A stretch of 64,000 bases of DNA, from the NCBI RefSeq assembly GCF_018598225.1, contig NZ_JAHESF010000002.1, positions 62,001 to 126,000 of the forward strand, given 5' to 3'. Shown here one piece after another: positions 60,000-64,000 of this stretch. A program made the position numbers and the translations under genes. The notes below the pieces were generated by a model that was not told the origin of the DNA, made no database searches, and was given only the letters and a program-made list of their open reading frames with translations. This DNA comes from Chryseosolibacter histidinae (GTDB lineage: Bacteria > Bacteroidota > Bacteroidia > Cytophagales > Cyclobacteriaceae). How positions within the stretch are numbered: position 1 is the stretch's first letter; every line of letters begins with the position of its first letter.

Positions 60000-60065
60000 G
60001 ATCGCTCATTGTCTCCCTTGCCTGAAAAATATCGGGTATTTGTGAGACCTGGTAATCAAAAGCTG

Positions 60066-60138
60066 GCGCAAGTCTTCCAGCAAGGGCTCAGCGCGCCGGC
60101 GAGACTTGTGCCCATAATAATGTCAGTCTTCAGACTGA
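60066..60138. repeat. Left 73-bp inverted repeat of the RAYT element
   Basis: It begins GCGCAAGTCTTCCAGC and ends GTCAGTCTTCAGACTGA. It contains its own internal inverted words (CAAGTCTTC ... GAGACTTG), typical of REP hairpins, and pairs with the repeat at 60758-60830. Confidence 0.85.
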
Positions 60139-60143
60139 TAGCG

Positions 60144-60695
60144 CTACATCAGCATCACATCAATTAACGTCTCCGGCAATCCCGCATAATTTACAGCACT
60201 GCTATACAAATAATCTTCCGGTGACAAAACAATACCCGCCTTCACAGGATTGTTGTGAATATAGTCCAACCTCTGATCGATCTTTTCATCGGTATTCAAT
60301 TCAATTGGATGACTATGCTGTTGCCAAAATTGATAACGCTTATTATTGTTATTTGCCCTGCCAGCCCTTTCAAACAGCCAGACGAATAGATCTTTTCTAC
60401 TTTCTTGTGGGTGTTCTTTGATTGCCTCGATGATCTTGAAAGACGTGAATTTCTTAATATCCCTTACGATGTGCTCAAGATTGGGGTCGCCATTTCTTCC
60501 GATGACCATGTGCACATGGCTGCTCATGATACAGTATGCCCAAACTTCCAGCCCCTTATGTTTCTGGCAATAGCGTATACTATCGAGAAATATGTCGCGG
60601 TATTCCTTTCGTGTAAATACGTCAAGCCAATGGATAACGGTAAATGTAACAAAGTACAAAGCGCCCTGATCGCGTATCTTGTATTTGCGGCTCAT
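60144..60695 (-). CDS. REP-associated tyrosine transposase (IS200/IS605-like Y1)
   Basis: This is a 183-residue Y1-type single-strand transposase from ATG 60695 (MSRKYKIRDQGALYFVTF). The HUH metal motif lies in CIMSSHVHMVIGRNG, followed by LEHIVRDIKKFTSFKII, FWQQHSHPIEL, and the catalytic-Tyr-containing RLDYIHNNPVKAG and PEDYLYSSAVNY. It belongs to the RAYT class thought to mobilise REP-type palindromes. A longer frame up to 60920 runs through the right inverted repeat and is rejected. The gene is intact, so the element may be active. Confidence 0.93.
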   Translation of the reverse strand: MSRKYKIRDQGALYFVTFTVIHWLDVFTRKEYRDIFLDSIRYCQKHKGLEVWAYCIMSSHVHMVIGRNGDPNLEHIVRDIKKFTSFKIIEAIKEHPQESRKDLFVWLFERAGRANNNNKRYQFWQQHSHPIELNTDEKIDQRLDYIHNNPVKAGIVLSPEDYLYSSAVNYAGLPETLIDVMLM

Positions 60696-60757
60696 GGAGA
60701 GAGGGTTATGTTTATATACAAGATAAATAAGAACGAAGGCTTCGTCAATACAAACTT

Positions 60758-60830
60758 TCAAGTCTGAAGACTTGATAAATAACAGGGCACAAGTCTCCCG
60801 CATGCCCTCACACAGGCTGAAGACTTGCGC
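60758..60830. repeat. Right 73-bp inverted repeat of the RAYT element
   Basis: It reads TCAAGTCTGAAGACTTGA at its inner end and CTGAAGACTTGCGC at its outer end. The inner end is itself an almost perfect palindrome, as in the left copy. Confidence 0.85.
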
Positions 60831-60973
60831 TAGCGCGGGGTTGAGGCAGTACAAAAATGTTTTTTTTGGATTGATACATTTTTTTTTAACTTTCATATAA
60901 GGAGCCCATCCGTGATGCACTGCATGTGCGGCGGATGGGCTTTGCTTTTCGCCTCACCCCTAACCCAACCTAT

Positions 60974-61492
60974 ATGAAATTGCTCATCTATTTCATTCTA
61001 TTCCCGCTCGCTGGCGCCATTGCGCAAGAACCGCTAAACGACACAATAGACTATTCACTGGTGTATAATCATGGCAATGTGATGTATATCCGAGAAAAAC
61101 AAAATATAGATGCAAAGGAGCTAGCAACAGTCAAAAGCCGAGATTCGGTTTTAATCGTTGATTATGATGGTGGTAAATACTTGAAGGTTAGATCGGCCGT
61201 AGATAAAACCATTCAGGGGTATTTGTATATAGACTTTTTTCAATATGACGCCAAGGCGGTAGACATAATTAATCGCCACCCCAAAAATCAATCAAATGGT
61301 AAAAAAATCAAAATGTTACCATTGCCAAAAGAAGACAAGTATCAGCAAACAGACTATAGTAACTCCCGCAACAATACATCACCAAACACTGGCAGCTACT
61401 CACAGTCCAAAGCTATACACACAGGACCACGTGGAGGCCAGTACTACATCAATAAAAACGGCAACAAGACCTATGTAAAAAAAAGGAAGTAA
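60974..61492 (+). CDS. Exported SH3-like protein with C-terminal PBCV-type basic adaptor motif
   Basis: This is a 172-residue protein from ATG 60974 with a signal peptide (LLIYFILFPLAGAIAQE). Residues about 25-100 look like an SH3-like barrel (NVMYIREKQNIDAKELATV, YLKVRSAVDKTIQGYLYID). After a Ser/Asn/Thr linker it ends with the motif TGPRGGQYYINKNGNKTYVK, as in the PBCV-specific basic adaptor domain that occurs at C termini of many Bacteroidota and phage-related proteins. It marks the beginning of the AT-rich segment. Function is unknown. Confidence 0.75.
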   Translation: MKLLIYFILFPLAGAIAQEPLNDTIDYSLVYNHGNVMYIREKQNIDAKELATVKSRDSVLIVDYDGGKYLKVRSAVDKTIQGYLYIDFFQYDAKAVDIINRHPKNQSNGKKIKMLPLPKEDKYQQTDYSNSRNNTSPNTGSYSQSKAIHTGPRGGQYYINKNGNKTYVKKRK

Positions 61493-61533
61493 TTAAGTTC
61501 AATTATGCAATAAGTGCAACTAATATAGACCAT

Positions 61534-62169
61534 ATGGATGGAATACTCAGAATCGGTATATTTTACGATGGATCACATTTCACTTACGCCCAGAATTACT
61601 TTTATGGGCGCAAACTTGGTTGGCTATCTTTTCAACCATTTCATAGACTCATAGAAGACTATACCAGAAGACACTACCAAAGCTTCATAGACTGTAAAGT
61701 CGTTTATGCTGCATGGTACCAAGGTTTGTTTACTACGACTACAGCAACCGAAAAAAATCTTAAGCTTGATAGAAATCGGCATCATGATTTGATGCATGCA
61801 GGCATTGAAACGAAATTCCATCCAATGAGCCAATCACAAGGTGAAAAAGGAATTGATGTTGCTATGGCGATTGACATTCTGCAGATAGGCATGGAGGGCA
61901 TCATGGACGTCGCTATTCTTGTAACGGGAGATGGAGACTTTGTGCCACTTGTCAGAGCGCTGATGAAAAGAGGAATGACAGTAATAGTCGCACATTTTGA
62001 ATATGAAGAAAATGGAAGAAAGAGCTTTGCTAACGAACGGTTAAAGGAAGCCTGTAACCATGTGCTGAATATTAATTCATTAGAAAAAGATAAGGAATAT
62101 AAAAATCAATTCAGGTCGCTTTTTAAAGAATTTAAGGGGGAGGAACTGCAAACATTAATGTTAAAATAA
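61534..62169 (+). CDS. NYN-domain (PIN-like) putative ribonuclease
   Basis: This is a 211-residue cytoplasmic protein. The NYN fold acidic residues are visible: GIFYDGSHF (Asp12), GEKGIDVAMAIDI (Asp108, Asp114) and VTGDGDFVPLV (Asp133, Asp135), in the LabA/DUF88-like order. NYN proteins are metal-dependent RNases or RNA-binding regulators. The C-terminal 50 residues are charged and helical. It lies 86 bp before a KAP-type NTPase in strikingly AT-rich DNA, and the two probably share a transcript. Catalysis is inferred from the motif only. Confidence 0.9.
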   Translation: MDGILRIGIFYDGSHFTYAQNYFYGRKLGWLSFQPFHRLIEDYTRRHYQSFIDCKVVYAAWYQGLFTTTTATEKNLKLDRNRHHDLMHAGIETKFHPMSQSQGEKGIDVAMAIDILQIGMEGIMDVAILVTGDGDFVPLVRALMKRGMTVIVAHFEYEENGRKSFANERLKEACNHVLNINSLEKDKEYKNQFRSLFKEFKGEELQTLMLK

Positions 62170-62255
62170 TATAGCCAGTCTGTCAAAAACTTCAATCGCG
62201 AGCCGCGGAAGGTTTGATCGTTCTTCGCTTTGTTAAAATAAATGGTTAAGCCTTT

Positions 62256-63746
62256 ATGAGTATGATTAATTCAAAGTTAGAAATACCTATAGACACGGAA
62301 AAAGCCAGATTTGAAGAATTCCTAAATCTACTAGGCAACGATAGGATAATTTTCTCAGGAATTTTTGGTTGTGGGAAAACTTACTTTCTAAGGAAATTCT
62401 TTGATAAGCACGCTAAATTTATTCCAATACATATCTATCCAACCAATTACTCAGTATCCAAGAATGAAGATATTTTTGAACTGATCAAATATGACATACT
62501 CTTCGAGCTACTAGGTCATAGTCCAGATCTGGATAAGTTAGAAGTGTCTTCATTAAATACGCTAGTATATCTCGATAGTGCTGATCAATTTGAAATCTTT
62601 AAAAACTTCATTTCTGCAATTCCAGAAATCGGAAAAAAGGTAATGTCAATACTCCAACCACTTGAGCACTTAATTACCAGTCTCAGTAAAAAAATTGACG
62701 CAAAACAAAATGAACTCACAATAAATGATGCAAAACATATCAAGGATTTTTCTGATAAACTAACTAAAAAACAAGGTCATGTTTACGAAAATGATTTCTA
62801 TACCCAGCTAATTACTAAGCTAATTGCAAGTATTAAAGGCAAGGGTCATGAATCTGATCAGGCGGATATAGAAGTAGTGTTAATTGTAGATGATCTTGAT
62901 CGCATTGATCCAGAGCATATTTTCAGAATAATAAACATTTTTGCAGTTCATTTTGATGTTCGAGACCTAAATGATGACAATAAATTTGGCCTTGACAGAA
63001 TAATTTTATCCTGTGATATTGATAACGTACGCTTGTTATTCAATAGTAAATATGGTACCAATACCGCATTTAATGGTTATATCGACAAGTTCTACAGCAG
63101 AGAAGTATTCTATTTTGATAATCGTAAAATGGTCACAGAAGCCATAGAACTTATAGTAGAATCAATTCAGATAAAGACTAAGGATGTTATGCCAATGTGG
63201 TCAAATAATTCAAACGACCGCAATTTCCTAATTCTTCTTTTAAAGAATTTAATTCTCTCCAACATTCTAAATCTTAGATCATTGACAAAACTTCATAACG
63301 CAGAGTATTTCTACGGAACCTTTTCGTTACATCGCATCGATAATAGAATTTTAAGCTATCAAATAGCATTTTTCAGTGTCTTTCAGTTCCTAGTACATTT
63401 ATTTGGTGGCATTAATAATTTAGTGGAAGCTATTACCAAAACAGAATTTAGAATTAATAAGCGTTCAAACTATTTCCTCGCGAATTTGTTGTTGATTTTG
63501 GATTGGAGAAATCACAAATTCATTAAAGAAGGCAAGGAAAATTCTGAATTTGTTTATAGCAAATTGCCGTCAGGAAATACCTACAGATACCAAATCAAGG
63601 TTACGTGGGATGAGAATGACAATTATTCTGATTTTTATACTGCAACCACTACTTCTGGGGGGGAAATTAGCATATTGGATTTCAGACGGGCAATAATAAG
63701 TGCGATAGAAGCCTATGCTGAACTGACAAGAGACGAAGAGATATAA
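62256..63746 (+). CDS. KAP-family-like P-loop NTPase
   Basis: This 496-residue protein has Walker A GIFGCGKT (residues 35-42), a long helical insert (about 110-200, with PLEHLITSLSKKIDAKQNE), and Walker B VVLIVDDLDRID (207-218), followed by the sensor-like ILSCDIDNVRLLF. The order matches the KAP/STAND-like P-loop ATPases, but the usual pair of membrane helices between Walker A and B is not seen, so it appears soluble. The last 150 residues (SGNTYRYQIKVTWDE...ISILDFRRAIISAIEAYAEL) have no recognised domain and may be an effector or partner-binding region. A role in defence is a hypothesis. Confidence 0.85.
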   Translation: MSMINSKLEIPIDTEKARFEEFLNLLGNDRIIFSGIFGCGKTYFLRKFFDKHAKFIPIHIYPTNYSVSKNEDIFELIKYDILFELLGHSPDLDKLEVSSLNTLVYLDSADQFEIFKNFISAIPEIGKKVMSILQPLEHLITSLSKKIDAKQNELTINDAKHIKDFSDKLTKKQGHVYENDFYTQLITKLIASIKGKGHESDQADIEVVLIVDDLDRIDPEHIFRIINIFAVHFDVRDLNDDNKFGLDRIILSCDIDNVRLLFNSKYGTNTAFNGYIDKFYSREVFYFDNRKMVTEAIELIVESIQIKTKDVMPMWSNNSNDRNFLILLLKNLILSNILNLRSLTKLHNAEYFYGTFSLHRIDNRILSYQIAFFSVFQFLVHLFGGINNLVEAITKTEFRINKRSNYFLANLLLILDWRNHKFIKEGKENSEFVYSKLPSGNTYRYQIKVTWDENDNYSDFYTATTTSGGEISILDFRRAIISAIEAYAELTRDEEI

Positions 63747-64000
63747 GATACTCCTTAAACCACCAGGTGGGCATTCACATGCCCTTAAAAAAATCCTGTA
63801 ATGAAAGCTTGAAATATTTACAAATAGTTTCTAACGTACTCACAGTGATATTGGTATCTGCCATCTCAATTCGCTCAAGTGAATTCTATATAGTTATGAA
63901 ATTGCTCTTGCGTCACATCGACGTTCACTCGCAATGTCTCTATTCTTTCAGCTATCTTCTGCAGAAAAATATCATTTCTTAGCTGCTCTACACGTCATTG
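63747..64000. other. Right edge containing a decayed regulator
   Basis: These 254 bp contain only the frameshifted XRE gene on the minus strand (63775-63994). The plus-strand open frame from 63767 is its antisense shadow. Confidence 0.6.
63775..63994 (-). pseudogene. Frameshifted XRE-family helix-turn-helix regulator
   Basis: Two minus-strand frames join into one XRE-type protein. The first reads LQKIAERIETLRVN then VDVTQEQFHNYIE and stops in frame. The second, offset by one base, continues NSLERIEMADTNITVSTLET then ICKYFKLSLQDFFKGM with a TGA at 63775-63777. The switch lies at about 63881-63890. A TGA also closes the first frame at 63995 with no normal start codon, so the 5' end is lost too. 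It is convergent with the KAP NTPase gene and could be the remains of that segment's regulator. Confidence 0.7.

What the first reader, a model, noticed from the sequence alone, without database searches (positions are those of the whole stretch)
60974..63994. AT-rich NYN RNase + KAP NTPase cassette: candidate undescribed defence or RNA-control system
Genes from about 60.9 kb to the edge are clearly AT-rich (about one third G+C in a 60-bp stretch counted by hand at 62401) against the rest of the window, which suggests acquisition. A NYN-type putative RNase (61534) and a soluble KAP-like P-loop ATPase (62256) lie 86 bp apart in the same direction, with a mobile RAYT element just left and a broken XRE regulator just right. 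Nuclease plus STAND/KAP-like ATPase is a recurring design of phage-defence systems. I do not recognise this exact pair. The NTPase lacks the usual KAP membrane helices and has an unassigned C-terminal region.
Basis: partly seen in the sequence, partly recalled or inferred. Interest (0 to 1): 0.78.

Follow-up and report, generated by a model that had tools for sequence, protein, structure and literature searches.

The report
Solo KAP ATPase beside unrelated NYN RNase
Two AT-rich neighbouring genes look like a new two-part antiviral system, but they were not found together in any other locus examined: the ATPase is a wandering single gene seen inside DNA-restriction operons and on virus-like contigs, so it alone is the likely phage-defence gene, and the RNase is probably an unrelated neighbour.

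Summary
Observation confirmed, interpretation only partly. A NYN RNase (61534-62169) and a soluble KAP NTPase (62256-63746) lie 86 bp apart on the + strand in AT-rich DNA, with a RAYT transposase on the left and a broken XRE regulator on the right. They are not a conserved system: of 43 other loci carrying the KAP family, 0 show a NYN gene in the fetched flanks. In 245 genomes of the family, KAP occurs in 9 and NYN in 4, together only here. The one close NYN relative (82%) lies beside ssb in a genome without a KAP hit. The KAP gene behaves as stand-alone cargo: 7 of 30 cellular loci lie in type I or III restriction-modification loci (0 of 38 control stretches; 3 tree lineages, backbone unresolved), and 13 IMG/VR contigs carry it. 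Walker A, Walker B and a candidate sensor arginine are conserved; the model resembles RdrA of RADAR. All 11 other members of the first alignment match PADLOC's candidate PDC-S20; the window protein does not. Best reading: a single-gene KAP defence candidate of a known kind, beside an unrelated RNase.

The parts
62256..63746 (+). KAP-family P-loop NTPase, 496 aa, no strong membrane helix; conserved N-terminal NTPase part (about 1-281), divergent C-terminal region
   Evidence: PF07693 28.9 bits, cut-off 20; invariant G38 G40 K41, D213 D215 R216, R341 in 41 rows; model pLDDT 84.3
61534..62169 (+). NYN-domain putative endoribonuclease, 211 aa, without the C-terminal cold-shock domain seen in most of its aligned relatives; probably not functionally tied to the KAP gene
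   Evidence: PF01936 E 9e-20; D12 D108 D133 D135 invariant in 14; the profile made from A2 matches PDB cold-shock proteins beyond the NYN part
60144..60734 (-). RAYT/Y1-type transposase (context), first of two near-identical copies bracketing about 6.2 kb
   Evidence: PF01797 31.5 bits; 777-bp 97.9% identical direct copy; 3 matches in the genome, one of them only 55% identical
60974..61492 (+). Small predicted exported protein with weak SH3-like and basic adaptor matches (context)
   Evidence: SH3_3 E 0.11 and PBCV_basic_adap E 0.01, both below cut-off; export is inferred from the N-terminus by eye
63775..64000 (-). Remnant of an XRE-type regulator, frameshifted, running off the window edge (context)
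   Evidence: translation; C-terminal piece HTH_26 E 7e-4, HTH_3 E 6e-3, both below cut-off

Best explanation
The KAP NTPase is a stand-alone, mobile, probable anti-phage gene; the NYN RNase is an unrelated neighbour. Shown: in the 43 other loci examined the KAP gene occurs without NYN, in some embedded in type I or III restriction-modification operons, in some on virus-like contigs, in others at isolated sites; its Walker A, Walker B and a candidate sensor-2 arginine are conserved; its predicted fold is closest to RdrA, then ORC/Cdc6 and NLR-type ATPases. Inferred: it assembles into an ATP-driven ring, as RdrA and QatA do; its fast-changing C-terminal region recognises an infection cue (a phage protein or nucleic acid); ATP hydrolysis then blocks phage development or costs the cell, as PifA does for T7. 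Prophages would carry it to exclude rivals, and RM islands would collect it as a second line. The NYN protein is inferred to be a metal-dependent single-strand endoribonuclease of general RNA metabolism.
For: 0 of 43 other KAP loci with NYN at E up to 1e-3. RM genes at 7 of 30 cellular KAP loci against 0 of 38 control stretches from the same genomes (Fisher 0.002), falling in three places of the tree: L023/L025/L040/L041, L042/L094, L098; L042 (type III) and L094 (type I) are sisters, so the gene changed RM type. Operon-like spacing: KAP starts 11 bp after hsdS in L094 with hsdR downstream, and 27 bp after hsdR in L098; RM identities by Pfam for L040, L042 and the L094 HsdR. 13 IMG/VR contigs; 4 of the 7 contigs tested carry head or tail genes by PHROGs. 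The window KAP's sister in the tree is the viral-contig protein L062, support 95/88. 11 of 12 aligned members match PADLOC PDC-S20 and 9 of 12 match PifA. RdrA is the top structural match, Z 12.3, 242 residues, rmsd 5.0. QatA, a KAP NTPase, is heptameric or octameric and binds DNA (PMC13279940, passages).
Against: No experiment. The window KAP itself matches no PADLOC model at E up to 1, and of 8 proteins in a second set (2 of them also in the first) only 5 match PDC-S20. No RM gene was found from 4.2 kb left to 14 kb right of the window gene. Many KAP loci lie among ordinary genes, for example three at or near nrdA (L099, L102, L103; by eye). The RM loci are few lineages, the tree backbone is unresolved, and the RM query proteins were drawn from KAP loci, which favours finding them there. 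No match in 50,697 deposited phage records. 3 of the 7 viral contigs tested gave no PHROGs hit. No effector domain is recognised. In QatABCD, some defence persists without QatA (PMC13279940, passages), so a KAP NTPase need not be the effector.
Confidence: 0.6

Rival explanations
1. NYN and KAP form a two-component defence system in which the KAP ATPase senses phage and switches on the NYN RNase.
For: Same strand, 86 bp apart, both AT-rich; NYN catalytic acids intact; distant NYN relatives are in PADLOC (NYN E 1e-9, HEC-09 E 7e-8).
Against: 0 of 43 other KAP loci show NYN; co-occurrence only in this genome in 59 and in 245 genomes; the 82% NYN relative's genome has no KAP hit (the same query finds KAP in G000).
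Confidence: 0.07
2. The KAP protein serves the mobile elements that carry it (a DNA loader or partition ATPase, as its ORC/Cdc6, MuB and TnsC likeness would allow) and is not a defence factor.
For: Structural likeness to ORC/Cdc6, MuB and TnsC at Z about 10; presence on viral contigs and next to resolvases (L066, L109).
Against: Embedding in RM operons of two types; best fold match is RdrA; relatives match PDC-S20 and PifA.
Confidence: 0.2
3. The roughly 6.2-kb stretch between the two RAYT copies is one mobile unit that brought the SH3-like, NYN and KAP genes together recently.
For: Two 98% identical direct 777-bp copies bracket the segment, and these are the only near-identical copies found in the genome.
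Against: RAYTs usually move themselves and their repeats, not cargo (recalled); no empty site could be tested because no orthologous right flank was found in the two other genomes of the genus (best 40% and 34%); GC differs between the genes.
Confidence: 0.12

Closest known systems
PDC-S20 (PADLOC single-gene phage-defence candidate)
   Same: 11 of 12 aligned family members match one of its models, best E 2.4e-10; several single-gene candidates of the PDC class came from guilt-by-embedding (PMC12988326 passages; PDC-S20 itself is not named there)
   Different: The window protein itself does not match it and only 5 of 8 in a second set do; no experimental validation seen; the matches are partial
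PifA of the F plasmid (excludes T7; a founding KAP member, recalled)
   Same: 9 of 12 members match the PifA model weakly, best E 7e-6; suppresses T7 development (PMC9311878 passages)
   Different: Model is 720 aa and the matches cover only about residues 134-221, around Walker B; PifA is described as membrane-associated, the window protein has no strong membrane helix
Tmn (transmembrane KAP NTPase defence)
   Same: KAP NTPase with anti-phage activity (PMC11846954 passages)
   Different: Tmn has two transmembrane domains; here none is evident
QatA of QatABCD
   Same: [quoted passage not shown] heptamer or octamer, binds DNA (PMC13279940 passages)
   Different: Part of a four-gene operon; 1 of 12 members matches the QatA model, at E 0.018
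RdrA of RADAR
   Same: Top structural match, Z 12.3 over 242 residues; Walker A, Walker B and candidate sensor residues conserved
   Different: RdrA chains are about 780-850 aa and partner a deaminase; the KAP profile has no sequence match in PDB below E 0.99
CRISPR-associated NYN of Bacteroides fragilis
   Same: NYN family with a conserved, essential aspartate; Mn-dependent non-specific ssRNA endonuclease (PMC11346440 abstract and passages)
   Different: That one belongs to a type III CRISPR locus; sequence identity to it was not measured here

Membership tests
KAP P-loop NTPase (PF07693) | Match above Pfam gathering score | tested here: met
   28.9 bits against 20; three relatives tested 37-48 bits
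KAP P-loop NTPase (PF07693) | Walker A and Walker B with following DLDR | tested here: met
   Window residues 35-42 GIFGCGKT and 212-216 DDLDR; G38, G40, K41 and D213, D215, R216 invariant in 41, D212 at least 90%
KAP NTPases with membrane helices (a subset; not a defining feature of PF07693) | Transmembrane segments inserted in the NTPase domain (title of a reference seen) | tested here: not met
   Highest 19-residue hydropathy mean 1.66 in the window protein, 1.15-1.73 over 12 members; simple hydropathy only
PDC-S20 | Match of the protein to a PADLOC PDC-S20 model | tested here: not met
   Window protein: 0 families at E up to 1; 11 of 12 aligned members match, 5 of 8 in a second set. Filed as a relative, not a member
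PifA | Match to the PADLOC PifA model | tested here: not met
   Window protein: none at E up to 1; 9 of 12 members weakly
Tmn | Two transmembrane domains | tested here: not met
   (hydropathy)
QatABCD | QatA model match of the KAP protein | tested here: not met
   No QatA match for the window protein at E up to 1
QatABCD | QatB, QatC, QatD neighbours | tested here: inconclusive
   None recognised by eye in the ORF lists; no profile search of the neighbours
RADAR RdrA | Same fold with RdrB deaminase partner | tested here: inconclusive
   Fold likeness Z 12.3; no deaminase-like neighbour recognised by eye
NYN domain (PF01936) | Pfam match and conserved catalytic acids | tested here: met
   72 bits, cut-off 24.2; D12, D108, D133, D135 invariant in 14
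   0 of 43 other KAP loci; some flanks are short or cut at contig ends, and a far-diverged NYN could be missed
Anti-phage defence system | Protection against phage | not testable with these tools
   Needs plaque assays

The most novel reading that the evidence does not exclude
A clade of soluble KAP ATPases is a self-contained single-gene immune sensor-effector that moves as cargo between restriction-modification operons of different types and prophages, with a rapidly diverging C-terminal region that sets which phage cue it detects; the window gene is an unembedded, phage-related member not caught by the PADLOC models.
Probability: 0.4. Interest if true: 0.58.

Novelty: new member of a known kind. 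Interest (0 to 1): 0.4.

Why it matters
It removes a false lead (a NYN-KAP pair) and redirects attention to the KAP gene alone. KAP NTPases are known in phage exclusion (PifA, Tmn, QatA), but how they work is largely open. A soluble single-gene clade with full ATPase motifs, a predicted fold near RdrA and embedding in RM operons of two types is a convenient, testable object, and the window member shows that the PADLOC models miss divergent relatives.

Tried and rejected
NYN-KAP pairing: rejected on 0 of 43. An hsdS remnant between NYN and KAP in the window (as the hsdS fragment beside KAP in L045): looked for in three frames by eye, none seen; blastn of that spacer gave only weak short hits, best E 0.045. 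Empty-site test for the RAYT-bracketed segment: no orthologous right flank in the two other genomes of the genus, so inconclusive. AT-richness as proof of joint transfer: rejected, because the KAP gene is more AT-rich than its surroundings at all 11 other loci measured. Solved-structure sequence search with the KAP profile: one match at E 0.99, taken as chance. Phage collection: no match for either protein. Plasmids: one partial KAP match in Segatella (35%, 59% of the query) and three distant NYN matches. Viral-contig scan with NYN: none confirmed. NCBIfam: nothing for the window KAP. PHROGs: nothing for the window KAP, phrog_8614 (no function given) for 9 of 12 members. BFVD structure search: one KAP protein of a Megaviridae environmental sample at E 5e-5, the rest at E above 1e-3.

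Literature: I read the rows listed (18 of 18; 20 of 454; 10 of 810; 30 of 61; 15 of 321; 2 of 2; 10 of 73,020; 3 of 3); one search found none. None of these rows names this clade or a NYN-KAP system by title or abstract start; that is no proof that nothing is in print. Passages only were read in PMC10853773, PMC3710099, PMC11846954, PMC12988326, PMC9994260, PMC12255303, PMC9311878 and PMC13279940; abstract, section list and passages in PMC11346440. Aravind 2004 and Payne 2024 were seen only as references.

Limits: the NYN loci that the profile found (6 plus the window) are the ones it was built from or the same genes, so they show only that the search ran. Flanks are mostly about 7-8 kb each side; L026, L045, L064, L067, L068, L069, L096, L110 and L111 are shorter on at least one side. 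The RM references came from KAP loci, which biases detection towards them. The 7 of 30 figure contains related loci; counted as 3 of 26 lineages against 0 of 38, my own arithmetic gives p of about 0.06. One viral contig, L069, had a weak HsdM-like hit (29%, 110 aa), not counted as RM. L045, L068 and L111 (cut or broken genes) were left out of the 41-row alignment. The tree used the first 300 residues of each protein.
Full report
What is there. The window is contig 45, bases 62001-126000, of an 8.04-Mb genome. The close NYN relative comes from a MAG named Cyclobacteriaceae bacterium. Its family sample returned two hits with the same contig numbers and coordinates as hits in the window's own family sample, so I infer that both belong to one family. 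Pfam confirms NYN (72 bits) and KAP_NTPase (28.9 bits, cut-off 20). GC is 0.384 and 0.327 against 0.499 for the window, although GC already falls from about 57 kb. The left RAYT is one of two 777-bp copies, 98% identical and in the same orientation, that bracket about 6.2 kb; only one other relative, 55% identical, was found in the genome. The right-hand XRE gene is frameshifted.

Are NYN and KAP a pair? On this evidence, no. In 59 relatives, NYN (E up to 1e-3) is in 13 genomes and KAP in 4, both only in this one. In 245 genomes of the family, KAP (E up to 1e-15) is in 9 and NYN (E up to 1e-8) in 4, both only in this one. In 395 genomes of the phylum, close NYN (E up to 1e-30) occurs only here and KAP (E up to 1e-20) in 3. 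I collected 43 other KAP loci: 12 (22 of 341 genomes of the order, four of them already in hand), and 13 viral contigs. A NYN profile run over open frames of 50 residues or more in these loci found none at E up to 1e-3; it did find the window and six NYN loci, but those sequences went into the profile. The one close NYN relative found (82% over 199 residues) sits between ssb and a cation transporter, by eye, in a genome where the KAP query finds nothing (the same query finds KAP in G000). In 244 genomes of that family sample, 3 had NYN at E up to 1e-15, only that one above 35% identity. Five more distant NYN loci lie among ordinary genes such as era/der, tadA and rluD, judged by eye.

What the NYN protein is. 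D12, D108, D133 and D135 are invariant in 14 sequences. Eleven of the 14 are longer, about 305-340 aa, and carry a C-terminal cold-shock domain (the alignment profile matches PDB cold-shock proteins); the window protein, L020 and L012 lack it. The B. fragilis NYN protein is an Mn-dependent, sequence-nonspecific ssRNA endonuclease (PMC11346440, abstract and passages). I infer a similar activity here, in general RNA metabolism. Distant matches to the PADLOC models NYN and HEC-09 keep a defence role open but unproven.

What the KAP protein is. Across 41 rows the N-terminal NTPase part is conserved, with G38, G40, K41 (Walker A), D213, D215, R216 (Walker B and DLDR) and R341 invariant, D212 and D254 at least 90%. 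By analogy with RdrA, where sensor 1 is D253 and sensor 2 is R377 (PMC9994260 passages), D254 and R341 are candidate sensors; I did not check this residue by residue. The C-terminal part diverges strongly. There is no strong hydrophobic helix. The second AlphaFold model has mean pLDDT 84.3 with 41 sequences (73.5 with 12). The other rows are close together, so this shows an AAA+/STAND-type core rather than a particular function.

Where the KAP gene lives. In 7 of 30 cellular loci it lies within a restriction-modification locus: type I in L023, L025, L040, L041, L094 and L098, type III in L042 (Pfam identities for L040, L042 and the L094 HsdR). In L094 the order is hsdM-hsdS-KAP-RhuM-like-hsdR, with 11 bp between hsdS and KAP and a further 230-aa ORF before hsdR; the hsdS-hsdR gap is a described site for embedded defence genes (PMC12255303 passages). 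L040 and L041 also carry a RloAB-like pair (RloB by Pfam for L040; L041 by eye). L045 has an hsdS-like fragment of 51 aa beside KAP. None of 38 control stretches of 15.5 kb, from 28 of the 29 KAP-bearing genomes, had a hit with the same queries (Fisher 0.002). The caveats matter: the queries came from KAP loci, the control places were picked by hand, and the tree reduces the seven to three groups with an unresolved backbone, which leaves the association suggestive. The sister pair L042 (type III) and L094 (type I) shows the gene in RM loci of different types. Thirteen IMG/VR contigs carry the gene; of 7 contigs tested with PHROGs, 4 (L059, L063, L064, L070) have head or tail genes and 3 do not. 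No record of the deposited-phage collection has it. Other cellular loci are isolated, three of them at or near nrdA (L099, L102, L103) and one beside terminase-like genes (L101), all by eye. The window gene's sister in the tree is L062, from a viral contig (95/88).

Comparison with the known. Of 12 aligned members, 11 match PADLOC PDC-S20 and 9 match PifA, weakly; the window protein matches neither. In a second set of 8 (two shared), 5 match PDC-S20 and three viral-contig proteins do not. Several PADLOC single-gene candidates came from guilt-by-embedding, and most await testing (PMC12988326 passages). PifA (PMC9311878 passages), Tmn (PMC11846954 passages) and QatA (PMC13279940 passages) show KAP NTPases in phage defence by differing designs; for QatA some defence persists without it. 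A KAP NTPase in operons with Orc/CDC6 genes is mentioned in PMC10853773 (passage); in L028 an ORC-CDC6-like gene lies one gene away from KAP, on the other strand. I therefore file the window gene as a KAP NTPase, a relative of PDC-S20 but not a member by its models, and a new member of a known kind.

Verdict. The KAP gene alone is the plausible defence gene. Mechanism (inferred, not shown): an ATP-driven oligomer whose C-terminal region detects infection, then blocks the phage or costs the cell.

Noticed in passing
window 60063-60839 and L002 8242-9016 (C45, about 6.2 kb to the right): Two 98% identical, same-orientation RAYT/Y1 copies with REP-like flanks (by eye) bracket the SH3-like, NYN and KAP genes.
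   Followed up: partly
L002 6991-7365 (just right of the window): Cluster of imperfect inverted repeats (155 bp at 67%, 51 bp at 86%) at and after the end of a 160-aa ORF that shows only sigma-70 region 2 (PF04542).
   Followed up: no
L058 9421-10317 and L095 8796-9653: A DUF4238 gene follows KAP directly in one viral and one cellular locus: a possible recurrent partner.
   Followed up: no
L099, L102, L103: The KAP gene sits at or near a ribonucleotide reductase gene (by eye) in three genomes of one family: either a shared ancestral site or an insertion hotspot.
   Followed up: no
L023 10224-13676 and L042 2977-6467: A protein of about 820 aa and an AAA-like protein (by eye) lie next to each other near KAP in two RM islands; they may be a second conserved defence pair.
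   Followed up: no
L066 7348-7911 and L109 8014-8637: A serine resolvase lies directly upstream of KAP in both a viral and a cellular locus.
   Followed up: no
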